Of a DNA stretch of 64,000 nt, positions 1,715 through 15,718 are shown in pieces. How positions within the stretch are numbered: the first letter of the stretch is position 1; each line of letters begins with the position of its first letter. The notes below the pieces were generated by a model. The model had not been told where the DNA came from. It saw nothing but the letters and a program-made list of their open reading frames with translations, and made no database searches. The DNA is from Natronosalvus caseinilyticus (GTDB taxonomy: Archaea; Halobacteriota; Halobacteria; Halobacteriales; Natrialbaceae), in NCBI RefSeq assembly GCF_017357105.1, contig NZ_CP071596.1, positions 310,001-374,000 on the forward strand, read 5' to 3'. Made by a program: the position numbers and the translations under genes.

Positions 1715-2665
1715 ATGAGTTTAACACACGACAACCCGGCCGAGGAACAGTCCGATAACGACAGCAGCAGCGACATACACAACGTCTGGGTCGAATTCAA
1801 GGACCGCCTCGACAACGTTGAGGACAATCCTGCGACCACTGGAAAGCTCGCGTCAGAATTCGCGAGGAACCTCGCGACAGCACACGTCTACGATGGTGCC
1901 GACAGCGTGGTCATTGACAGCTTGCTCGGGCAGTTCGCACGGAATGCTAACGTTCAAAAAGGTAAGCTCGAAGAGACGTATGAGACCTACGTCGAAACCC
2001 TAGAAGCCGAAGCAGAGGCAGACAAGGAAGAGAACGCTGATAATGACGGTATAGTCGTCATCTCCCCGGATAAGCTCCTGACAAATCACGTGGCAAAGGT
2101 CATCAAGTACTGTCCTACTGATGCGAGTGCCGACGCGCGTTATCTCTGGGTGTTCGAGGACGGTGAGACGATGGAGACTAAACGGCAGCACCTCGCCCTG
2201 AATTCATTCAGCGACGAAGCCCACGACCAACTTGGTCGAATCGTCTCCGACAACACGTCTGATGATTGTGACCTTCCGTGGCGAACGTTCGTGAAGCTAT
2301 TCATTGAGCGGCATAAGGAGGAACGCGAAGAGAAAGGGGACCGGTCCTACGCTGTCGAAGACCTGCGTGCCGTCATTGAACAGCGTCCGGCCACTACTGA
2401 AAAAGACGACGCAGCCATGTCGAGCTTACCGTGGGTCAATGAGGACGAAGACGGTGTCCTTTACGTTCCCAGCGATATCGTCCAGCGTGTCCTCATCGAC
2501 TATGATACCATCAATGCGCGCGATTTACAGGTGGAACTTGACGAAAGAGGCGTTAAGCTCGGTAACGTAAAGCAGACCTCGGCCGCCGGAACACTCGTCC
2601 GGTTCTGGCCTCTTACGCGCAACTTTGCAGACGTCTCTCTCGAGGAGTGTGATGACGATGAATGA
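1715..2665 (+). CDS. Hypothetical protein of replication-type operon, 316 aa
   Basis: Not recognised. It is acidic with a charged, disordered start (about residues 1-25), then mostly helical sequence. The last 80 residues (from SLPWVNEDE) look like a small winged-helix/primase-C-terminal type domain, ending with LVRFWPLTR. Its end overlaps the start of the UvrD-like helicase gene, and that gene overlaps the primase gene, so the three are translationally coupled. The context suggests a role in replication or copy control of the element, perhaps a loader or DNA-binding partner; this is inference from position. Confidence 0.6.
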   Translation: MSLTHDNPAEEQSDNDSSSDIHNVWVEFKDRLDNVEDNPATTGKLASEFARNLATAHVYDGADSVVIDSLLGQFARNANVQKGKLEETYETYVETLEAEAEADKEENADNDGIVVISPDKLLTNHVAKVIKYCPTDASADARYLWVFEDGETMETKRQHLALNSFSDEAHDQLGRIVSDNTSDDCDLPWRTFVKLFIERHKEEREEKGDRSYAVEDLRAVIEQRPATTEKDDAAMSSLPWVNEDEDGVLYVPSDIVQRVLIDYDTINARDLQVELDERGVKLGNVKQTSAAGTLVRFWPLTRNFADVSLEECDDDE

Positions 2666-4457
2666 TGGGGTCGAGGTCCCACGATACCCTATCGTAGGTT
2701 GTGAAGATGTCCCTATTACCGAATCGGCGAAAATAAATGGGCCACCGGGAACTGGAAAAACAACACAAGGTCTGTGCAGAGTACAGTGTCTCGTAGCGGA
2801 GGAGGGTTACGACGTAGACGACGTCACGTGGATAACCTACCGACGCTCGCTCGCAGATGACCTCATTGAGCAAATGGTTGACTGGGGACTTATCGAGGAA
2901 AAACAATTGATTGACCCCCAACACGGCGCTACGAAACAAATCAGCACCGCTCACGCGGTCTGTTATCGCCTCCAACGAGATGAATTCCAAAATCGCCGTA
3001 CACCATCATGGGATGATTATCGGAGATTCTGTGACGAATACTACTCAGTTCCGTATTCGACCCCCGTATCCTCTGGTTCGAAACCCCGTGGTGAGACTCT
3101 CTTTGGCGTCTACTATTGGCTCAAGAACAATCGGAAGAGCATGCTGGAGGCGACAGACTGTGACCGGTATATGGACCTCATGGAGATATGGCCGACGTCA
3201 CCGTCGCTTCAGCGATTCGAGACCGACTGGGAGGGTTTCAAGGAGCAAGAAAGTTTAGTCGATTATCATGAATACCTCGAACGGGCTCTGGAGCGCAGTA
3301 TTACTCCCGAGACGGATATTGTGGTCATTGACGAATACCACGACGCGTTCCCGCTCTTACACGCTCTGGCGAAGGAATGGATAAACGACGCTAAGACAGC
3401 AATAGTCCTTGGCGACCCACAGCAAGTAGTCAACCACCACGAAGGTGCGTCACCTGCATTCTTCGAGGAACTCGACCTCCCCGAGATACATCTGATGAAG
3501 ACTCACCGGGTCCCCAAATTGTTGTGGAATGCCGCTTCGAACGTTCTGAAGGGGTACCACACCCCGCACACCCCTGATTTCGCCTCCTCATACGAAGGAA
3601 ACGCACTCGACGAGGTACACGCACCGACGTTCTGGTACGACCAGCAAACGAATACGTGGGAAGCGCCCACTGGCCAACGCGGTTCACCAGATTCCCTCAT
3701 CGAACGCTACGTTGAAGCAGGAGAACAGTCACTGTTCCTCGTTAGAGCGCGGTTCCAACAGCACGGAATCGCAGCAGGTTTCAAAGACACTGGAATTATA
3801 TTCTGCGCTCAGGAACGGTCTGCGGGCTGTTGGCATCAGGATAACCGGAAGCGCCACCTGTACAATGCGCTCAAGCGTCTCGAAGGATACGATGAGAATA
3901 CAGCCGTCTATCTCCGGGGGCCAGAGGTCCAAGAACTGTTGCACTATACCCGTGCGGAAGATTTGGAATATAATCACTCGACCATTGAGACGGTCGCCAA
4001 CTCACGGTGGATGCGGAACTCCGTTGTCCATGTCAATGCAATAGACGACCTCGTCACCGACTCGTGGTGGAACCGATACACGCGAGGTGAGACATCGGTT
4101 GCCTTTCTTGTCGAACGGGAGGGTGAACACGCACTCCCGCGCGCTGAATTAATGGCTGCACTGGCCCGGAACGCTGAACCCACGGTTGATGTGGAGAGGG
4201 AAGGTGACGGGCTCGCGAACGCACCGACCATTATGACGATACACGCGAGCAAAGGCACTGAAGCAGACCGAGTGTTCGTCTACGATGGTGTCACCAAGCG
4301 AATTCGCCGCGAAACACGGAAAAACATCCGAGCAGACGCTAATGAAGATAGGACGTGGTATGTGGCTCTCACGAGGGCATCGAAACAAACAATAGTCGTT
4401 CGTGGAGCGTTCGAATTCATGTCTAGCCACCTTCCATCGAAGGGAGTATTAACATGA
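2652..4457 (+). CDS. UvrD/Rep-type superfamily 1 DNA helicase, 601 aa
   Basis: An ATP-driven DNA helicase. Walker A NGPPGTGKTT lies at about residues 29-38. Walker B is VVIDEYHDAF, the DEYHD corresponding to DEFQD of UvrD. GDPQQ is motif III, THRVPK resembles motif IV, TIHASKGTEADRVF is motif V and YVALTRASKQ is motif VI. I chose the ATG at 2652 because GAGGAG sits four bases before it; an in-frame ATG at 2625 lies well inside the preceding gene. It overlaps the upstream gene by 14 bases and the primase by ATGA. It is somewhat short for UvrD because the 1B/2B subdomains are reduced, as is common on archaeal mobile elements. It likely works with the primase. Confidence 0.85.
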   Translation: MTMNDGVEVPRYPIVGCEDVPITESAKINGPPGTGKTTQGLCRVQCLVAEEGYDVDDVTWITYRRSLADDLIEQMVDWGLIEEKQLIDPQHGATKQISTAHAVCYRLQRDEFQNRRTPSWDDYRRFCDEYYSVPYSTPVSSGSKPRGETLFGVYYWLKNNRKSMLEATDCDRYMDLMEIWPTSPSLQRFETDWEGFKEQESLVDYHEYLERALERSITPETDIVVIDEYHDAFPLLHALAKEWINDAKTAIVLGDPQQVVNHHEGASPAFFEELDLPEIHLMKTHRVPKLLWNAASNVLKGYHTPHTPDFASSYEGNALDEVHAPTFWYDQQTNTWEAPTGQRGSPDSLIERYVEAGEQSLFLVRARFQQHGIAAGFKDTGIIFCAQERSAGCWHQDNRKRHLYNALKRLEGYDENTAVYLRGPEVQELLHYTRAEDLEYNHSTIETVANSRWMRNSVVHVNAIDDLVTDSWWNRYTRGETSVAFLVEREGEHALPRAELMAALARNAEPTVDVEREGDGLANAPTIMTIHASKGTEADRVFVYDGVTKRIRRETRKNIRADANEDRTWYVALTRASKQTIVVRGAFEFMSSHLPSKGVLT

Positions 4458-7080: not shown

Positions 7081-7470
7081 CTACTTCCGCGCTACAGCAT
7101 GTGTTGCACTCATTGGTCGAGGTTCTTCGACGAACATCTGACCAATGTCTAGGTAGACCCCGCCTTCACTCCGTTCTATACGCACACGGAACTCCACATC
7201 GTCTACGAGCGTGCCCTCAACCAAAAACTGCACAGCATCCATCGACCCAAGGGACTGAGTGGTTCGAAGCATTTGACGGAGGTCGGTGAGGATATCGTTT
7301 CGTTCCTCCTCTACTGCATTATAGAGAAGGTCGTCAAGGCCAGTGACCGTGACTGGGGTCTCTACATCCTCGTCGGCAGCTACCCGGCGGAAGAATTCCA
7401 GCGCAGCTAGTTCACTCTTGGTGCCAGCCTCGCGTTCCGTCGTGATGTTGTAACCGGGATGGAGTGTCAT
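7081..7470 (-). CDS. Unknown protein, last gene of the BREX-like operon, 129 aa
   Basis: Not recognised. It starts two bases after the stop codon of the DUF1156 methylase, so it belongs to the same transcript as the ATPase, PglZ-like protein and methylase. The sequence has a helical, acidic N-terminal half (ELAALEFFRRVAADED, DLRQMLRTTQSL) and a strand-rich C-terminal half (VDDVEFRVRIERSEGGVYLDIG). It has no cysteine cluster, no membrane helix and no catalytic signature I can name. It may be an accessory or specificity subunit of the defence system. It does not resemble BrxA, BrxB or BrxF as I know them. Confidence 0.7.
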   Translation of the reverse strand: MTLHPGYNITTEREAGTKSELAALEFFRRVAADEDVETPVTVTGLDDLLYNAVEEERNDILTDLRQMLRTTQSLGSMDAVQFLVEGTLVDDVEFRVRIERSEGGVYLDIGQMFVEEPRPMSATHAVARK

Positions 7471-7472
7471 GG

Positions 7473-10016
7473 CTAGAACTGGCTGAGGCTCATCTCCATC
7501 ACATTCTCATAGCGTTCATCGTCGGTAACATCAGCCATAAATTCAGCTAGTTCTTGAAGGTCGTCATTCTTCCATTCTTTGAGATACTCGGTCGTGTTCT
7601 GGTCGGTCTTGTAAAGATGATAGAGGTACTGTACCTTGTCAATATCTAATAAAGCATCGCTGCCCTTGCCATTATTATTGAGCTTGGAATCAATGTAGTT
7701 GACGCGTTCGTCCGCGATTACGGGCTCTTTCTTGTCACGTGGTCCTTTCACGAGTTTCTCGTCTTCAAGGTCGCTAACGTTCAGATTCTTGGCAAGAAGG
7801 TGTTTGTTCAGGTCATCGAATTTCTCCCATCCGCGCCGGTAGAACGCCGCGTATGCCTGTGTGATAGAATCAATACTTGACGGCAAATTGACCGAGCTTT
7901 CAAGAACCTGTTCAATGACTGAATCGACTGTATCAAGAGCTTCGTCAATACCAACTTGCTCACCTTCTGAGTACACATGCGGGTAGTGCTTTGAGTAGTA
8001 GTACATACACTTCCCACGAAGAATGACACCAAGGTCTGCCAGTGAAAGAGACTGATGACGTTTTCGTTCAGTATCCGCGATGTTCTGCAATTCGAAGAAT
8101 AAGTCTTGACGGAGTTCGTCAAGAGTAGTCTCATTCTCCGTGTCTTCCTTATTTGCGAATATTAGGATGTCGTACTCTGCATTGTCTAGATTGGTGATGT
8201 GGGGATTGTTGGACCGCTCAGATTGGACAGGATATGCGGCAGTAACCGTAAATCCACTATCAATGATAGCTTGTAGAATCACGGACCATGCTTCATTTTC
8301 GTTATGGTGATACGTGAACACCATTTCACCATCATCTTTTAAGACTCGGTGACATTCTGAGAACACATTTGATAGACTTGATATAAAGAACTGCTCGCTT
8401 TTGCCAGATTTACTGTTTGCAACAATCTCCCTAGCTTTTGGAACTAATTCTGGTTCGAATTCCTTATAATCCTCTTTCAATGCTTCACGCAGCCACACAT
8501 AAAAATAATCAGAGAGTTCACTATATTGGACATTATCATAATATGGTGGGTCAGTAATCACATAATCTACACTCTCATCTGGTTCCTCTAATCTTTCAGA
8601 CGTTTTGCTGTGCAGTGAAACCAGCCGGTCTTCCGAGATGGATTCGTTCTGGATATGTCGCTTATCAATATCTCCTGTTTGAGTGTTCTTCACCTTCTCA
8701 AATGGACGGTCACAGTAATCCTTAGCATCGTATACTTTTTCAAAATGATTCTCTAAGGCTGTGATATTTTGCGCCCGGTTTAGTGGGTTCCCCTCAACTG
8801 GTTGAACTACAGGAATATACGCGTGGCGCTGGAACACATTTAATGAGGTCTTCCGGCCAGTATTCCACTTACAGAGTTTCCCGTTTCTAGTAAGCGCTGC
8901 AGATATTGACGTTATAAGGAATTCTCGGACATTTGGGTTCTCGACCTTTTGGACACGTTTGAGAAGTTTCCCAAACGTGAGGAGGTGTCTTTTTGTGAAT
9001 AGTTCCGAGTACCGTTCATAATTATAATTTGTAAGAGCCCGTGTTTTATCACCCTCTGGTATCTTTTGAGAGGGTATTGGGAGTGAGTCTTTTATATTCT
9101 CAAACTCACTCTCAGCTTCCTGTATTGTAGCATAATCTTCTTCATCTGGTTCTTTAAATTTCTTCTTCCCAGAAGGCGTTCGGTAATATATGGCAAAATA
9201 GTCGAATTCTGGCTTGCTATTATTTCTTTGGAGGGTCTCCTTCACGTCATTTTTATGCCCATTAGAGCAAGTGAATTTGCCATATCCATAATTGCCATCG
9301 CTTGGGTTGAATTCTTTACCACAATTGCTACATGTTTCTGACTCCCCAATTTTATGGTTTAGGTATTCAATCCGGTTATCACACTCATCATTCTTACAAT
9401 AGATAACAGCAGGTGAAGTCTTCTTTTTCTGTCCTAATTCATAACGCGGGAATAAATGGACAGTTTCATCACAGGACAGACAGTTAAGTTTCTGAGTTTG
9501 GAGGGAATAGAGTATTTCACACTCTCGTCCCGTGTCAGGGTCTTTGGTTGTATAGAATCGGTCCATATCTTTCCGAACATCATCAAGCAATCTATTGAAT
9601 TCACTTCGTAATTTATCTAAATCAACCTCATCAATAGATTTCTTAGCTGTCCACCAAGCAACCGGATTCAGTTCATATCCTATAGTTTGTGCCCCCAATC
9701 TATTTAATTCAAACAATGTTGTTCCTCCGCCAACAAAAGGGTCAAGAATAACTTCATCTTCAAATCTATCTCCTTGGTTTTGGAAAAACAATCCATCAAA
9801 AGAGCCCGAACTAGTTTCTCGTAGAATATCGTCCGCTTCTACGTTGTCATCAGTGAGCGTCGCTAGGCCTAATGTACGGAAAGTAGTACCCGGCCGTCTA
9901 GCCCACCATTTGTGAATTGAATAAATCGGTCGGTAGTAATTTCGATTGATTGCTTCTCGTTCGGCGAACCAGTCTATAGCTTCTAACGGAAGTTTGTCCC
10001 AAGTTTCCATTTTCAT
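7473..10016 (-). CDS. DUF1156 adenine-type DNA methyltransferase, PglX-class, 847 aa
   Basis: A large DNA methylase of the type found in BREX type 3-like and related loci. The N-terminus has the DUF1156 signature HKWWARRP (about 35-42). DPFVGGGTT (92-100) followed by GYELNP is the SAM-binding motif I, and ITDPPYYDN (about 488) is the catalytic motif of N6-adenine/N4-cytosine amino-methylases. Between these, about residues 174-255 hold zinc-ribbon pairs (CLSC, CKNDEC, CSNC, CSNGH). In BREX the methylase marks host DNA and is also needed for defence. It starts by ATGA overlap inside the end of the PglZ-like gene. Its A+T content is high even for this element, pointing to recent transfer. Confidence 0.88.
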   Translation of the reverse strand: MKMETWDKLPLEAIDWFAEREAINRNYYRPIYSIHKWWARRPGTTFRTLGLATLTDDNVEADDILRETSSGSFDGLFFQNQGDRFEDEVILDPFVGGGTTLFELNRLGAQTIGYELNPVAWWTAKKSIDEVDLDKLRSEFNRLLDDVRKDMDRFYTTKDPDTGRECEILYSLQTQKLNCLSCDETVHLFPRYELGQKKKTSPAVIYCKNDECDNRIEYLNHKIGESETCSNCGKEFNPSDGNYGYGKFTCSNGHKNDVKETLQRNNSKPEFDYFAIYYRTPSGKKKFKEPDEEDYATIQEAESEFENIKDSLPIPSQKIPEGDKTRALTNYNYERYSELFTKRHLLTFGKLLKRVQKVENPNVREFLITSISAALTRNGKLCKWNTGRKTSLNVFQRHAYIPVVQPVEGNPLNRAQNITALENHFEKVYDAKDYCDRPFEKVKNTQTGDIDKRHIQNESISEDRLVSLHSKTSERLEEPDESVDYVITDPPYYDNVQYSELSDYFYVWLREALKEDYKEFEPELVPKAREIVANSKSGKSEQFFISSLSNVFSECHRVLKDDGEMVFTYHHNENEAWSVILQAIIDSGFTVTAAYPVQSERSNNPHITNLDNAEYDILIFANKEDTENETTLDELRQDLFFELQNIADTERKRHQSLSLADLGVILRGKCMYYYSKHYPHVYSEGEQVGIDEALDTVDSVIEQVLESSVNLPSSIDSITQAYAAFYRRGWEKFDDLNKHLLAKNLNVSDLEDEKLVKGPRDKKEPVIADERVNYIDSKLNNNGKGSDALLDIDKVQYLYHLYKTDQNTTEYLKEWKNDDLQELAEFMADVTDDERYENVMEMSLSQF

Positions 10017-10951
10017 TTACCTCTATCCGCGTTAGTGTTGATTCTCAATACAGGAGTCATACACTCTGGCAGGCTAATCCCACCGTGCATGACTTTTTTC
10101 GTTGCACCCCGCGTCGTCCATTTGTAGTGTCCCTGTACCACATAGTGGTTGTCTATTCGTTTAATAATGTTCGCCTGTTCTAGTAATCGGAATGCCTGAC
10201 TGTTCGAGACCTTAGTGAACCGGCTGCTGAACTTGCTACTCAACGATACTTCCTCCTCATCGGAGAGGGTATACGGTGAATTGCCGAGATGATTGATGTA
10301 ACCGTGGTCACTTGTTACGAGGAATTCAGTGTGTACACTCTCGTAGATGATATTCTCTAAAAGTGCCTTTACGTCTTCGTAGATGTCTCCAATCTCTTCG
10401 GTAGAGTAATTCCCTTTGAGTGCCCCTTCAAGTCGTTCATCAGGATGACGTGTCCATACGAATTCAGGTGACGTGTCCGGGAGTTGGGGTACATCAAGGT
10501 CACCAATATATCGGTAGTCATCGCGTGTGACAACCGACGGACTATGCGCGTCAAACCATTCTCGGCAAATGAACTGAGTCTCACTCGGCAGGCCCTCAAT
10601 AGGTGCCCATGAAAGCGATACGTCCCAGTCGTGTTCCTCGGTAAGTTCCTGTTCAAGCCGGAATCCCTCACGAAGGCTGAGAGCGTCCATGATGACACCA
10701 CAACCCTCTTCCAATTCTGTAATGGGGTGGTCACCCATCTGGTTGCGGAGGTCTTCATAGACTTGGGGATATAGTTTCGCTAGTTCACGCTCAAGCAGGC
10801 GTGTCTGGTATTCCGAGTCTGCGAGGTGCCGGTCGCCAAGTGCGTCTTTGTTTGCCCAAATACGGCGAAGGCATTCGAATACGCCATCAAGGATGTTGTC
10901 TTCGCGAAGCAGCGCTTCGAACTCCGACCGATTGTACAATCCGTTACTCAT
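10013..10951 (-). CDS. pglZ: Compact PglZ-like (alkaline-phosphatase fold) protein, 312 aa
   Basis: A short form of PglZ, the phosphatase-fold component of Pgl and BREX systems. It keeps the family's landmarks: a metal-site aspartate in GVIMDALSLREG (D89), TSDHGYI (D215, H216) and HGGISLPECMTPV (H289). It is only 312 residues, whereas BREX PglZ proteins are usually 600 or more, so the extra N- and C-terminal domains are missing. It lies between the DUF499 ATPase (8-base overlap) and the DUF1156 methylase (4-base overlap), the expected company for PglZ. The first 80 residues are helical. The symbol is by homology of motif and context; activity is unproven. Confidence 0.78.
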   Translation of the reverse strand: MSNGLYNRSEFEALLREDNILDGVFECLRRIWANKDALGDRHLADSEYQTRLLERELAKLYPQVYEDLRNQMGDHPITELEEGCGVIMDALSLREGFRLEQELTEEHDWDVSLSWAPIEGLPSETQFICREWFDAHSPSVVTRDDYRYIGDLDVPQLPDTSPEFVWTRHPDERLEGALKGNYSTEEIGDIYEDVKALLENIIYESVHTEFLVTSDHGYINHLGNSPYTLSDEEEVSLSSKFSSRFTKVSNSQAFRLLEQANIIKRIDNHYVVQGHYKWTTRGATKKVMHGGISLPECMTPVLRINTNADRGK

Positions 10952-13733
10952 TCTTGTCCACCTGAAGACTGACGGACAGAGACGCCTGTTCGGGTACGTT
11001 CAGGTCCCAGACGAGACTCAAGAAGGACTGTCGACTCATCGGTTCGTCCGGGTCGATAACAAAGGTCTCGTCCAATGAAACTTTCTCGTCAAGCGCGCCC
11101 GCGCTAATTCCATAGTCCGTCAAATCGTCCGACGTCAGGGTTCCGCTCACAGAAATTTCTGCTTCGTGGATGTCCCATTCAATGCCGATTTCTCGCTCGA
11201 GCGTATCAATGAGGTCTGGTTTGTTGTCTGCATCAAGTGTCCCCATGATGGGGTGGGACTGAATCTTCGGCCCGACTTCTTCCTCAATGCCAAACGTGTC
11301 GAGCATCTCGTCGGTTGACCCGCCTTCAACAGAGACCTTCCCTTCGCGGATGTCGCTTGCATCGAACTCGAACCCGCATTCACAGGACGTTCCTTCTAGC
11401 TCGCTCCCGCACTGAGGGCATTCGAATGCGGTCGAAGCTCCCTCACCACCTGTCTTGGTTCCTCCGGTCGATGTCGCCGTCCCACTGGTTTCGGAGCCAT
11501 CACCACCGTCTATTGACCCAGTCTTGTCGATAGTGATGGTCTCTTCTTCCTCGTCATCATCATCTTGTTCGAGGTACTGCTGGTGAACAAGATTAGTATC
11601 GTTTCCGAGGCTTCCAACACGTTCATCAAAGTAGTTACCTGCCTGAATAACACCATCTCGGCAGAGAGAATCGATAGCCTCTTCCAGTTCATCTTCGCTT
11701 GTCAGTGTCGTGTAGGAAGGATTCCGATAGAAGTCGTTTTTGAGGTGTTCGTACTGAATTCCGCTCGCATCTGCATCTTTGACCGCATTTTTGACCTCCG
11801 ACCGCAGTTGGCTGCTGTCTGGTTTGACGACCTCCTTCGTTGCAGTGTAGAAATCCACATTCCCCCCACTCGGGAGGTCCTGCGGGAACAGCCCGCGCTT
11901 AGTCGATGTGTGGATGGTACCGTACTTGTCCCGGACGCGGTCACGGAGGTTCTGGTAGTTCTGGTCGTGAATTTCCTCGAATCCCTCGGGGAGGACTTCC
12001 TCTTCCCGTTTGAGTTGCTCGCCTGCAACAACCTTCCGTGCAAGTTCGATGATTCCCGTGTTGGTGTCGACACTCGACCGCTTTTCGGGGGTGACTAAGA
12101 CAAGCGTATTATTGAATTCCCGTTCTTGACCTGTCGTAAGTTCCTCGAAGTCTTCATCATAGTTGCGCTTTGCACCGAGCGAGACCGCGATTTTCAGCGC
12201 TTTAGTGTCGGGAATATCCTGCTCAGTGTTGACCGGGTCAAGAATGTAGACGTTGTTGTGACCATCGAAGAGGTCTTCCCGGGTGAGCGACTCAACGCGA
12301 TGAATCGCGTCATGTTTATGAATGTCCTCTGATTTCTTCTCGATGCGTGCTGCTGGGTTTTCGTCTACGTCGAACGCGTACTCGCCATTGATACGATGGA
12401 TGTGCCATGCGTGGCCGTAGACCTCCTCAGTGAACGTCTGTACGATGCGGTGAGCGTTGATTCCTTTTCGCATCGTGCCCATCAGCATCTGGCGTTTATT
12501 TGCTCCTTCCTCGCCTGCCCGCGCGAGACTATGAAGCAATACGATATTGAGGAGTTCTTCATGGAATTCTCCAAAACTACCATCGGGCTTCTGGATTCGG
12601 TGATAGTCGTTCACGTATTTGCCGACGAGTTCGGAATCGATGTATTGGAAGCGGTCGGTGTACGTGAATACATCAACATCGCCCGTCAGGATGAAGTCTA
12701 CGGATGTGTAGTTGTCTCGGAGAATCTCAGCGAGGAACCGGAGAAGGCCTCGAGCATCCGAACTGATGCGCTGTTCCGAATACTTCTCCATCAATAGTTG
12801 GAGCAAGACCGGGTGGAACGGATAGTATCGTTCGATGCGGTCTTGCATGTCGTGATAGTCCTCAAGTTGAATCTGGTCGTTCTGTCGGTAGACGTCCGTG
12901 TATTCCTTTGCAAGGGAAGAAACACCTCCCGAGTCGGTGACTGTTCCGACGAGACGGTGAAGGATAAAGTCGATTTTCTCGTCGCGACGGGAAGAGAGGT
13001 CGTGTGTAAACGGATTTGTCCGCTGCGTAATAGCTTGGACGTCCGCGTCTTCGTAGAGTAACGAGACGAACACGCTCAGCCGCGTGTCATCTCTGCCAGC
13101 AGCTTCAAGAAGGTTCTGAAGGAACGCAAGATTGTCATCTTTATACTCGGAGCGATTCGCCATCCCGAACCAACGCTCGAACTCATCAATGAGAATGAGG
13201 GTTGGCTCATTTTCAAGCGTGTCCCGAATCTGATGAACAGTTGGAAGGTCTGTGTCGCCAGCCCACTGGTCGATGCCCAGATAATCACCAACTGCTTCGG
13301 AAAGGCGGTTATAATCCTTATCGAGATTGAACATTTGGAGGGCCGCAGACCGCGTTTCATCGGGTATATCTACGTCAATCCCTCGCTGGTCTAGCCAGCG
13401 TTGTCCAAGGTTCGGGGAGTTGAACAGGTGATAGACGACGAGTTCGATGTGACTTTTCCCGCTCCCGTAGCCACCACCAACGATTTGACCGCCCTCGGAA
13501 AAACCGTCATTGCCATTGAGCTTCTGAGTCGTGTTTTCGATAATGGTCGTGAGCGTCTCCGTAGGATACGTGATTTCGAGGATACGCTCCGCGTCCTGCT
13601 CTGGCGAATCGCGGTCGTCATAGAGATTGTAGAGTGAAACTTCGTCGAGGAGGCCGGAAGGGTCGATACTTCCATCAGAATCTTGTATCTCATCACTTGG
13701 CGAAATATAATCCGCAATGACTCCCTCAGCCAT
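10944..13733 (-). CDS. DUF499 / BrxC-PglY-like AAA+ ATPase, 929 aa
   Basis: The large P-loop ATPase of a BREX-like operon. Walker A GGGYGSGKSH lies at about 86-95 and Walker B LILIDEFERW at about 179-188, both in the form typical of DUF499 proteins. A zinc ribbon (CPQC and CECG) is near 767-790, after an acidic Gly/Ser/Thr-rich linker, and the C-terminus is beta-rich. I chose the ATG at 13733 because GAGGTG lies six bases before it; the frame extends to 13778 without a ribosome site. It is the first gene of the operon. In BREX, BrxC/PglY is essential for defence and probably forms a DNA-bound complex with PglX and PglZ. Confidence 0.85.
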   Translation of the reverse strand: MAEGVIADYISPSDEIQDSDGSIDPSGLLDEVSLYNLYDDRDSPEQDAERILEITYPTETLTTIIENTTQKLNGNDGFSEGGQIVGGGYGSGKSHIELVVYHLFNSPNLGQRWLDQRGIDVDIPDETRSAALQMFNLDKDYNRLSEAVGDYLGIDQWAGDTDLPTVHQIRDTLENEPTLILIDEFERWFGMANRSEYKDDNLAFLQNLLEAAGRDDTRLSVFVSLLYEDADVQAITQRTNPFTHDLSSRRDEKIDFILHRLVGTVTDSGGVSSLAKEYTDVYRQNDQIQLEDYHDMQDRIERYYPFHPVLLQLLMEKYSEQRISSDARGLLRFLAEILRDNYTSVDFILTGDVDVFTYTDRFQYIDSELVGKYVNDYHRIQKPDGSFGEFHEELLNIVLLHSLARAGEEGANKRQMLMGTMRKGINAHRIVQTFTEEVYGHAWHIHRINGEYAFDVDENPAARIEKKSEDIHKHDAIHRVESLTREDLFDGHNNVYILDPVNTEQDIPDTKALKIAVSLGAKRNYDEDFEELTTGQEREFNNTLVLVTPEKRSSVDTNTGIIELARKVVAGEQLKREEEVLPEGFEEIHDQNYQNLRDRVRDKYGTIHTSTKRGLFPQDLPSGGNVDFYTATKEVVKPDSSQLRSEVKNAVKDADASGIQYEHLKNDFYRNPSYTTLTSEDELEEAIDSLCRDGVIQAGNYFDERVGSLGNDTNLVHQQYLEQDDDDEEEETITIDKTGSIDGGDGSETSGTATSTGGTKTGGEGASTAFECPQCGSELEGTSCECGFEFDASDIREGKVSVEGGSTDEMLDTFGIEEEVGPKIQSHPIMGTLDADNKPDLIDTLEREIGIEWDIHEAEISVSGTLTSDDLTDYGISAGALDEKVSLDETFVIDPDEPMSRQSFLSLVWDLNVPEQASLSVSLQVDKNE

Positions 13734-14052
13734 TATCATCACCTCTGGCGGTAATCCCACAAGTTCTAACCATATCAAACTCCATTCTAGTCACGATTTA
13801 TAGTTGTTTTGAGTAATGGCTTCTGGAAGAGACCTGCATATAGATAGTATTAGTCTCGCACTTCATTCACGGCAGTGGCTATACAGTCATCCTCAGCCTC
13901 GCGGTCGAGATACCATTGACGCTATTCATTGTTTTGATGGATATTAGAAAGAGTCTGACGCGTGCAGTTCTAGCTTCATTTCAACCGAATTAACCACGAA
14001 CAGACAGCGGATTGTCTTTCTCGAAGTATATTCCGACTATATTATGTGGATT
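13734..14052. other. Promoter region between Kiwa-like and BREX-like operons
   Basis: No complete gene. The minus-strand TATA box at 13796-13802 probably drives the BREX-like operon. A short minus-strand frame ending in TAA at 13850-13852 reads like the C-terminal 23 codons of a haloarchaeal protein (REAEDDCIATAVNEVRD) but is preceded by an in-frame TAG, so it may be the relic of a lost gene. The rest is AT-rich with no clear structure. Confidence 0.5.
13796..13802 (-). promoter_or_regulatory. TATA box (TATAAAT) for BREX-like operon
   Basis: On the minus strand TATAAAT is centred 66 bases before the chosen ATG at 13733. Archaeal transcription would start about 25 bases downstream, near 13772, leaving a leader of about 40 bases that contains the GAGGTG ribosome site. 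Inference from sequence. Confidence 0.5.
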
Positions 14053-15033
14053 TTACTCGTTCTGGACCCGCTGTTTACCACCAGTTGTGATATAGGGAGT
14101 TTCCGTAAGCCGGGAATCAACGTGGTCTTCGTTAAAAAGACTGAGAACTTTCCATACGTCACGCTTGTCGCGCATTTTCAATGCCTCTTCACCATTGTCG
14201 TTTGAAACAACATTGAGTTCGACTTCAAAATCGTCAATAATTCCCTTAGCAGCACCCATGTCCATTTCTTCGTATACCCCTAGCTGCTTTACTTCGTACA
14301 TTTTTCGCATTGCATCCGGATACGACTTGGCTGCCTCCTTGAACAGGTCAAAATTAGCAATGGGTACGTCACCGTCTTCGAGGTCGTCAAACACGTCTTC
14401 TGCTACGCGTTCGAATTCATCCATATAATCGAAAATCTTCTCGAAATTCCGCTGGTTGAAGATTAGTATCGTGTCAGCGTAGTAGAGACAGTCAATTCGA
14501 TTTGGAATTGCCATCACTGTCTCATCAATGGGTGTGTACACTTCGTCGGTGATACGAAGACGAAGCCGCGATTTTCGGCCGAGAATTTGTCTCCGCGAGT
14601 AAAATTGGAACGCAATCACCATATCATTGGAATCATGTAGTCGGATAGCTTGGAACGAGGGTATAGGAGACTCTTCGTAGTCAGTCCCTCGAAATCGCTC
14701 TCCTTCGATAAGACGTTCGAAGTTCTCGAATTGGGGGATATCAGCCGTAGACACGTACTGGATTAGGTCCTCATCACGGTCCTTGTTCGAAATAGAGTAG
14801 GAATCCGTCTCCTTGTTGTTGTTAGCAAGGGCCGTTCTCTTATTTTCCACCTTCTCGTAGACCAGTTCCTCAAGCTCACTAAGAACACGTGATTTGGCCA
14901 TCACGCGCTTGAAACTATAGTCGTGGTTCTCCGCATCGGATTCTTCATCCCGAGCTAAAATGAGGTCAACTCCCTTATCAGTTGACCGCTGGAAGACCTC
15001 ATTCACTTCATTTAGCGTTTCCTCAACAGTCAT
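14053..15033 (-). CDS. kwaB: KwaB-like protein (DUF4868) of a Kiwa defence system, 326 aa
   Basis: Resembles KwaB, the cytosolic DUF4868 partner of Kiwa. The central and C-terminal part carries the family's typical string of features: AIPNRIDCLYYADTILIFN, then NFEKIFDYMDEFERVAEDV, and a C-terminal segment ending in strand-rich sequence. The length (326) is close to the roughly 315 residues of known KwaB. It directly follows and overlaps by one base (TAATG) a four-helix membrane protein, exactly the Kiwa gene order. Known Kiwa proteins form a membrane complex that senses phage and blocks phage DNA replication or expression. Assignment is from motif memory plus context; no alignment was run. 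Confidence 0.7.
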   Translation of the reverse strand: MTVEETLNEVNEVFQRSTDKGVDLILARDEESDAENHDYSFKRVMAKSRVLSELEELVYEKVENKRTALANNNKETDSYSISNKDRDEDLIQYVSTADIPQFENFERLIEGERFRGTDYEESPIPSFQAIRLHDSNDMVIAFQFYSRRQILGRKSRLRLRITDEVYTPIDETVMAIPNRIDCLYYADTILIFNQRNFEKIFDYMDEFERVAEDVFDDLEDGDVPIANFDLFKEAAKSYPDAMRKMYEVKQLGVYEEMDMGAAKGIIDDFEVELNVVSNDNGEEALKMRDKRDVWKVLSLFNEDHVDSRLTETPYITTGGKQRVQNE

Positions 15034-15602
15034 TACTTTACTGTCACATAGACGCCGGTACTTAATTCCACGGTTTTGAGAGAGACTATCTCGTCCTTTA
15101 GCGTCTGTTTGGTTAGGATGAGTCGCTTTCCATTATCGTCTTCTACTTTATAAATATTGTATCGAAAGAATGCTAATACTGGGTTCGCGTATAGTTTGTT
15201 AGAACGGACCTGCACTGCGCCAATCGCTAGGAACAAGATGAGAAATGCGCCGATATTGAACGGGTCTGTGTAATCAAACACGATGAACGGAAAGATGTAT
15301 ACGATAAGATATTCAGTCACCATCTCCGTTTGATTTTCATAGTTTTCGACATCTTCCCGAACGCCTCCTCGACTTCGTTTTAGATGCAGTACCAATAACA
15401 GAAATCCAACCGAAAAGATAGTGAACAGTATCGCGCCAATCGATAGTGCCGACACTTCAACTCCGCCTAATTCATGCAATCCGAATTCAATGCCAAATGT
15501 AGAAAACTTCGCTTCATGTCCACGAAGAGCAACAACCAAGTAGAGAGGCGCGTACGAACTGAAAAAAAGTATCCAGCGCGCCCACTCCTTTACGTTCCCC
15601 AT
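15033..15602 (-). CDS. kwaA: KwaA-like membrane protein of a Kiwa defence system, 189 aa
   Basis: A small membrane protein with four likely helices: ILFFSSYAPLYLVVAL, SIGAILFTIFSVGFLLLVL, EYLIVYIFPFIVF and IGAFLILFLAIGAVQV, followed by a soluble tail of about 50 residues containing NPVLAFFRYNIYKVE. Size, topology and position just before a DUF4868 gene match KwaA, the membrane anchor of Kiwa. I use the ATG at 15602 (MGNVKEW); a TTG at 15632 would add ten residues. Neither has a strong ribosome site. Together with kwaB it forms a two-gene operon; the low GC content agrees with acquisition by transfer. Confidence 0.7.
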   Translation of the reverse strand: MGNVKEWARWILFFSSYAPLYLVVALRGHEAKFSTFGIEFGLHELGGVEVSALSIGAILFTIFSVGFLLLVLHLKRSRGGVREDVENYENQTEMVTEYLIVYIFPFIVFDYTDPFNIGAFLILFLAIGAVQVRSNKLYANPVLAFFRYNIYKVEDDNGKRLILTKQTLKDEIVSLKTVELSTGVYVTVK

Positions 15603-15718
15603 TGGGTCTTTTTCTTGGGACTGCTTGCACAAGTCGCTTCTGATAGTCCTGCCATGTGACAGAATCTCCGGAATTGCAAGTCATCGTATTACAGGTAATA
15701 AAGCCCGAGCTAAGGGGA

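What the first reader, a model, noticed from the sequence alone, without database searches (positions are those of the whole stretch)
7081..13802. Compact BREX-like operon: DUF499 ATPase, mini-PglZ, DUF1156 methylase and an unknown protein
Seen: four overlapping or abutting genes on one strand with BrxC/PglY-type Walker motifs, PglZ landmarks (MDALSLREG, TSDHGY, HGGISL) and DUF1156 methylase motifs. Known: these three families occur together in BREX, especially type 3-like loci with brxF, brxA and a helicase. Here BrxA, BrxB, BrxF, BrxL and helicase are absent, and PglZ is about half size. This looks like a reduced, possibly self-sufficient BREX relative.
Basis: partly seen in the sequence, partly recalled or inferred. 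Interest (0 to 1): 0.88.

Follow-up and report, generated by a model that had tools for sequence, protein, structure and literature searches.

The report
Helicase-free BREX-related defence operon
A salt-loving archaeon carries a compact four-gene cassette that very likely marks its own DNA and attacks unmarked viral DNA; it belongs to a recently described BREX-related family but consistently lacks the helicase that family is said to need, so it may be one of the smallest systems of this kind.

Summary
The operon is real. Four intact genes lie on the minus strand at 13733-7081: a DUF499 AAA+ ATPase, a standalone PglZ, a DUF1156 DNA methyltransferase and a 129-aa protein (p129). The same genes in the same order occur in 21 haloarchaeal loci (46-81% identical in ATPase and PglZ), mostly in a divergent second haloarchaeal clade (about 28-32%), and in two deeper archaea. 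PglZ keeps all mapped catalytic positions. In a tree the standalone PglZs, including those of bacterial "Type-3 BREX-related (BR)" loci, form one clade apart from full-length BREX PglZ (100/100). The difference is the missing helicase: bacterial relatives read ATPase-PglZ-MTase-(165-173 aa)-SNF2 helicase; the archaeal loci stop after the small gene. No intact BrxHII-type helicase lies beside any of about 30 archaeal loci. p129 sits in the slot of the family's inactive STAND (iSTAND) sensor, but homology tests were inconclusive. The host also has a canonical BREX on another replicon; only 3 of 16 operon hosts have one. Most likely a self-contained, PglZ-nuclease restriction-modification system: a new variant of a known kind.

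The parts
10944..13733 (-). DUF499-type AAA+ ATPase (BrxC-like), 929 aa from the likely ATG; Walker A GGYGSGKS (residue 87), Walker B LILIDE (179). Longest ORF runs to 13778 (TTG, 944 aa).
   Evidence: Pfam DUF499 5.7e-9 above cut-off, NCBIfam DUF499_antiphage 2e-17 (below cut-off), PADLOC HmaC 2e-13; motifs; start by comparison with homologues
10013..10951 (-). standalone PglZ (alkaline-phosphatase/NPP-superfamily nuclease-phosphodiesterase domain), 312 aa; conserved D89, T125, D171, D215, H216, H289
   Evidence: PADLOC PglZ 1.2e-8; profile vs solved PglZ 9nv3 2e-7 / 5.6e-12 and PorX; hhalign to host's own BREX PglZ 94%; positions invariant in 13/13 diverse members; tree
7473..10016 (-). DUF1156-type DNA methyltransferase (N6-adenine by family), 847 aa: DPFVGGG (92), DPPY (489), variable region between them (about 270-480) taken as target-recognition insert
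   Evidence: Pfam DUF1156 and N6_N4_Mtase above cut-off, PADLOC HmaB 1e-42, PglXI 4e-32; identity profile
7081..7470 (-). p129: small conserved protein, no known family; candidate counterpart of the iSTAND (BrxF/BrxB-like) gene by position and a Walker-B-like motif (VTVTGLDDLL)
   Evidence: conserved in 21/21 clade-A operons and 8 of 9 clade-B ones; no Pfam/NCBIfam/PADLOC match; homology to bacterial iSTAND inconclusive
13734..14052 (-). leader/promoter region of the operon; TATA-like 'CTATAAAT' about 65-70 nt upstream of the ATG (inference)
   Evidence: sequence

Best explanation
A compact, helicase-free member of the PglZ-bearing DUF499 'BREX-related' (Type-3 BR) systems: a self-contained restriction-modification-like antiviral module. 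Proposed working. (1) The DUF1156 methyltransferase methylates an adenine-containing site in host DNA; specificity lies in its variable middle region. (2) The DUF499 ATPase forms the DNA-engaging AAA+ scaffold, binding methyltransferase and PglZ. (3) p129 acts as the small sensor/adapter in the position of the iSTAND (BrxB/BrxF-like) subunit. (4) When the complex meets unmethylated invading DNA, PglZ, a metal-dependent phosphodiesterase/nuclease, nicks it and stops replication. Shown here: gene content, order, coupling, conservation, intact catalytic motifs, phylogenetic placement of PglZ, absence of a linked helicase, and absence of canonical BREX in most hosts. Inferred: methylation activity and site, complex formation, nuclease output, antiviral function, role of p129.
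For: Same four-gene order in 21 clade-A loci and in a divergent clade B. An 8-bp ATPase/PglZ overlap in 15 of 15 clade-A operons measured and no internal stops in any of the four genes. PglZ catalytic positions invariant, including T125 and H289, which align with T538/H741 of E. fergusonii PglZ and T272/H500 of PorX, residues shown to matter for metal binding and cleavage (PMC12205998). Standalone PglZs form one clade with those of bacterial ATPase-PglZ-MTase-small-helicase loci, the published Type-3 BR architecture. MTase identity falls to 0.47-0.58 in the middle region and is mostly 0.66-0.89 after it, as expected for a diversifying recognition domain. Defence-island setting: Kiwa KwaA/KwaB directly upstream in the window; pAgo, PbeA and OLD/Gabija-like genes beside relatives; low-GC island of about 18 kb in a chromosome of about 0.66 GC. 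Independence: DUF6079 BrxC in only 3 of 16 hosts; several hosts lack a BrxHII-type helicase.
Against: No experiment on this operon or its haloarchaeal relatives was found. The AlphaFold models of PglZ and p129 were low confidence (pLDDT 45 and 47) and the fold search was empty. p129 was not linked to iSTAND beyond control scores. The published paper describes Type-3 BR with a helicase, which is absent here. One relative (L047) carries a C-terminal BrxHII-type fragment 3.9 kb downstream, so helicase loss, or helicase supplied from elsewhere, cannot be ruled out for every host.
Confidence: 0.75

Rival explanations
1. Ordinary Type-3 BR system that has simply lost its helicase, or borrows an SNF2/BrxHII-like helicase encoded elsewhere in the genome; the four genes are not sufficient.
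For: Bacterial relatives have a helicase directly after the small gene. L047 keeps a BrxHII-type C-terminal fragment near its operon. Some hosts have other 900-1300 aa SNF2 proteins elsewhere, including the window's host (1283 aa, C1:2832321).
Against: No intact BrxHII-type helicase beside about 30 archaeal loci of two divergent clades. Four hosts (G284, G336, G347, G368) have only one SNF2-profile match, a 640-700 aa gene like that seen in the other hosts. The four genes are intact in all 15 operons measured.
Confidence: 0.2
2. Not a defence system: a DNA-modification/regulatory or selfish-maintenance (addiction) module that uses PglZ as a cyclic-oligonucleotide phosphodiesterase, as PorX does.
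For: PorX and BREX PglZ cleave cyclic oligonucleotides (PMC12205998). Several copies lie on plasmids, and RM-type modules can act as addiction modules (established knowledge).
Against: Patchy distribution, defence-island setting with Kiwa and others, kinship with a family classed as antiviral.
Confidence: 0.12
3. A degraded or accidental assembly of BREX fragments without function.
For: PglZ lacks the N-terminal half of BREX PglZ; helicase absent.
Against: Intact ORFs, invariant active sites, an identical 8-bp overlap and identical order across many genera.
Confidence: 0.02

Closest known systems
Type-3 BREX-related (BR) systems (Rakesh & Krishnan 2026, PMC12839542)
   Same: DUF499 ATPase, DUF1156 N6-MTase, standalone PglZ with all active-site residues; small gene after the MTase; same gene order as bacterial examples read here (L100, L102).
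   Different: No helicase in or near the locus; small protein is 129 aa instead of 165-173 aa and not provably an iSTAND. The paper reports 134 archaea with Type-3 BR but the text read gives no helicase count for them, so these loci may be included there.
BREX type 3 (BrxC, BrxXI/PglXI, BrxHII, PglZ, BrxF, BrxA)
   Same: Homologous ATPase, MTase (PADLOC PglXI 4e-32) and PglZ domain.
   Different: ATPase is DUF499, not DUF6079; PglZ about half size and outside the BREX PglZ clade; no BrxA, no BrxHII; no BrxF recognised.
Hma / Type-1 BR (helicase, methylase, DUF499 ATPase)
   Same: HmaB and HmaC are the best PADLOC matches of MTase and ATPase.
   Different: Hma has a helicase-nuclease and no PglZ; here PglZ and no helicase.
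Canonical BREX on the host's own second replicon (G000:C2 45112-61287: BrxC, PglX, PglZ, BrxL)
   Same: Shares the PglZ core (hhalign 94%).
   Different: Different ATPase and MTase families, full-length 812-aa PglZ, BrxL; separate replicon.

Membership tests
Type-3 BR system | DUF499-type ATPase (not DUF6079) | tested here: met
   Pfam DUF499 5.7e-9 above cut-off; no DUF6079 match listed
Type-3 BR system | DUF1156-type N6-MTase | tested here: met
   Pfam DUF1156 4.1e-6 and N6_N4_Mtase 1.3e-15, both above cut-off
Type-3 BR system | standalone PglZ with active-site residues | tested here: met
   312 aa; D89, T125, D171, D215, H216, H289 invariant; on one side of a 100/100 branch with bacterial Type-3 BR PglZ, against BREX PglZ
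Type-3 BR system | iSTAND gene (present in 82% according to the paper) | tested here: inconclusive
   p129 is in the same position and has a Walker-B-like motif, but the hhalign score 13.6 is below the best control, 18.5
Type-3 BR system | BrxHII-like helicase without nuclease | tested here: not met
   absent from window flanks and from about 30 archaeal loci
BREX (canonical, any type) | BrxC of the DUF6079 kind | tested here: not met
   operon ATPase is DUF499; DUF6079 found in the host only on C2
BREX (canonical, any type) | BrxA- and BrxB-like homologues | tested here: not met
   no PADLOC/NCBIfam/Pfam match in the neighbourhood; whether p129 is a distant iSTAND (BrxB-like) remains open
BREX / BR | operon-dependent methylation of a specific site and virus restriction | not testable with these tools
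   needs methylome and plating

The most novel reading that the evidence does not exclude
A four-protein, helicase-free PglZ restriction system, widespread in haloarchaea, in which the DUF499 ATPase alone moves on or scans DNA and a new 129-aa protein family (not an iSTAND) couples recognition to PglZ: possibly the minimal working core of BREX-like immunity.
Probability: 0.35. Interest if true: 0.68.

Novelty: new variant of a known kind. Interest (0 to 1): 0.5.

Why it matters
How BREX stops phage replication is unsettled, partly because so many proteins are involved. A four-gene relative with PglZ as the only recognisable nuclease, and no helicase, BrxA or BrxL, would make the question 'what is the minimal PglZ-based restriction machine?' directly testable, in archaea with usable genetics. 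It would also show that the helicase, treated as a core component of BR systems, is dispensable.

Tried and rejected
Viral-contig scans for PglZ and p129 found nothing and there was no match in phage records, so no sign of viral carriage. Hypothesis that p129 is an iSTAND: motif and position suggestive, but hhalign against bacterial iSTAND genes was no better than the best of 150 control proteins; kept as inference only. Hypothesis of dependence on a canonical BREX in the same host: rejected as a rule, because 13 of 16 hosts show no DUF6079 BrxC. Papers: only one held paper names DUF499, DUF1156 and PglZ together; no experimental work on the haloarchaeal operon was found. In Halorubrum lacusprofundi the plasmid that bears a clade-B copy was lost in a virus-sensitive strain, but a CRISPR system with matching spacers was lost with it, so this is not evidence for the operon.

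Full report
Observation. The ATPase ORF has a TTG start at 13778, but homologues begin at the methionine encoded at 13733. Genes overlap by 8 and 4 bp and then are 2 bp apart; all four are intact. They lie in a low-GC stretch (0.40-0.54) that ends at about 16.5 kb in the window and begins about 2 kb before it, in a chromosome of about 0.66 GC. No tRNA was found there.

Identity of the parts. The ATPase matches DUF499 above the Pfam cut-off; the MTase matches DUF1156 and N6_N4_Mtase above cut-off; PglZ falls under the Pfam cut-off but is matched by PADLOC PglZ (1.2e-8). A profile of 18 archaeal PglZs finds solved BREX PglZ 9nv3 at 2e-7; a wider profile finds it at 5.6e-12 and PorX at 8e-6. hhalign against the host's own 812-aa BREX PglZ gives 94% probability over the core. 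The positions D89, T125, D171, D215, H216 and H289 are invariant in 13 diverse members. By alignment T125 and H289 are the counterparts of T538 and H741 of E. fergusonii PglZ, whose mutation removes or reduces metal binding, nuclease activity and, in part, defence (PMC12205998). p129 has no convincing match in Pfam, NCBIfam or PADLOC.

Relatives. A genome search found PglZ hits in few genomes (8 of 199); p129 was found in 25 of 391 haloarchaeal genomes. Reading the neighbourhoods, 21 loci including the window carry ATPase-PglZ-MTase-p129 (clade A, genera including Halorubrum, Halosimplex, Haladaptatus and Halobacterium). A second haloarchaeal clade (B, about 28-32% identity) has ATPase-PglZ-MTase in nine loci, with a p129 homologue recognised in eight, including Halorubrum lacusprofundi plasmid pHLAC01. 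Two non-haloarchaeal archaea have ATPase-PglZ-MTase plus a 130-131 aa protein (L093, L094); in L093 a HerA-like ATPase follows. In 15 of 15 clade-A operons measured the ATPase/PglZ overlap is exactly 8 bp. MTase identity is lowest between the two catalytic motifs, as expected for a target-recognition region. Occurrence is patchy: none of the seven other genomes of the window's genus that were searched has it.

Placement. A January 2026 paper defines DUF499-centred BREX-related (BR) systems. Its Type 3 has a standalone active PglZ in 569 taxa (134 archaea), an iSTAND in 82%, and a BrxHII-like helicase without nuclease. Three bacterial plasmid loci read here fit that: DUF499-type ATPase, PglZ of 329-339 aa, MTase, a 165-173 aa gene, SNF2 helicase. 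In a maximum-likelihood tree all standalone PglZs, bacterial and archaeal, are on one side of a branch with 100/100 support against full-length BREX PglZ. Relations among the standalone groups are less certain (long branches), so it is open whether the helicase was gained in bacteria or lost in archaea.

What is different. No helicase follows p129 in any clade-A or clade-B locus. Profiles built from the bacterial helicases and from L064's helicase find no intact BrxHII-type helicase in the flanks of clade A or B; L047 alone has a C-terminal fragment 3.9 kb away. Across 16 host genomes SNF2-profile matches vary; four hosts have only a single 640-700 aa match, similar in size to one seen in the other hosts. 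So the helicase is neither linked nor universally available in trans. Likewise DUF6079 BrxC occurs in only 3 of the 16. The window's own host does carry a canonical BREX set (BrxC, PglX, PglZ, BrxL) on its second contig, but on another replicon. p129 stands where bacteria have the iSTAND, and family members show a hydrophobic strand ending in G-L-D/E where a STAND Walker B would be (one deep member reads VVDGLDEFM), but statistical tests did not separate this from controls. p129 homologues also sit beside DUF499 ATPases in loci where no PglZ was found (L062-L064), which suggests that it works with the ATPase or MTase rather than with PglZ alone.

Mechanism. The best-supported account is a BREX-like restriction-modification module: MTase marks self; ATPase scaffold plus small sensor p129 inspects DNA; PglZ nicks unmarked DNA. 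The parts and their integrity are shown; the activities are inferred from the families. Rivals: helicase supplied in trans; a regulatory or addiction role; decay (rejected).

Verdict. Confirmed observation; interpretation partly supported. It is a helicase-free variant of a published kind. Interest moderate: the class was new in 2026, this variant is not discussed in the parts of the paper that were read, and its small size makes a clean genetic test possible.

Noticed in passing
window 14053-15632 (-): KwaA and KwaB homologues (Kiwa system) directly upstream of the operon on the same strand; PADLOC KwaA 7e-26, KwaB 1e-15.
   Followed up: partly
G000:C2 45112-61287 (L096): Canonical BREX-like set BrxC (1206 aa), PglX (1278), PglZ (812), BrxL (675), with two unassigned minus-strand genes (631 and 329 aa) inside.
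   Followed up: partly
window 2625-4457 (+): UvrD/GajB-like SF1 helicase between an integrase-like gene (16-696), a 316-aa and a 490-aa unknown protein; looks like part of the integrated element.
   Followed up: no
L047 14187-15527 (+): C-terminal half of a BrxHII-type helicase (446 aa) 3.9 kb downstream of a clade-A operon: possible relic of a lost helicase gene.
   Followed up: partly
L057 10442-10804 (+): A clade-A-type p129 alone, just downstream of a locus with a divergent DUF1156-type MTase, an SF1 helicase and a 1304-aa SNF2 protein; p129 may be a remnant or a shared part.
   Followed up: partly
L062-L064, p129-like genes at about 10.3-10.7 kb: p129-like genes near a 1077-1086 aa DUF499-type ATPase and DUF1156-type MTase without a detected PglZ, beside McrBC-like genes.
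   Followed up: partly
L066 7963-9387 and L058 196-1623: Short class I pAgo genes (474-475 aa) upstream of operons of both clades.
   Followed up: no
L101 12786-15663 (+), Klebsiella plasmid: Bacterial Type-3 BR locus with a SIR2-family gene and an ATP-binding protein inserted between PglZ and MTase; the plasmid also carries KPC-2.
   Followed up: no
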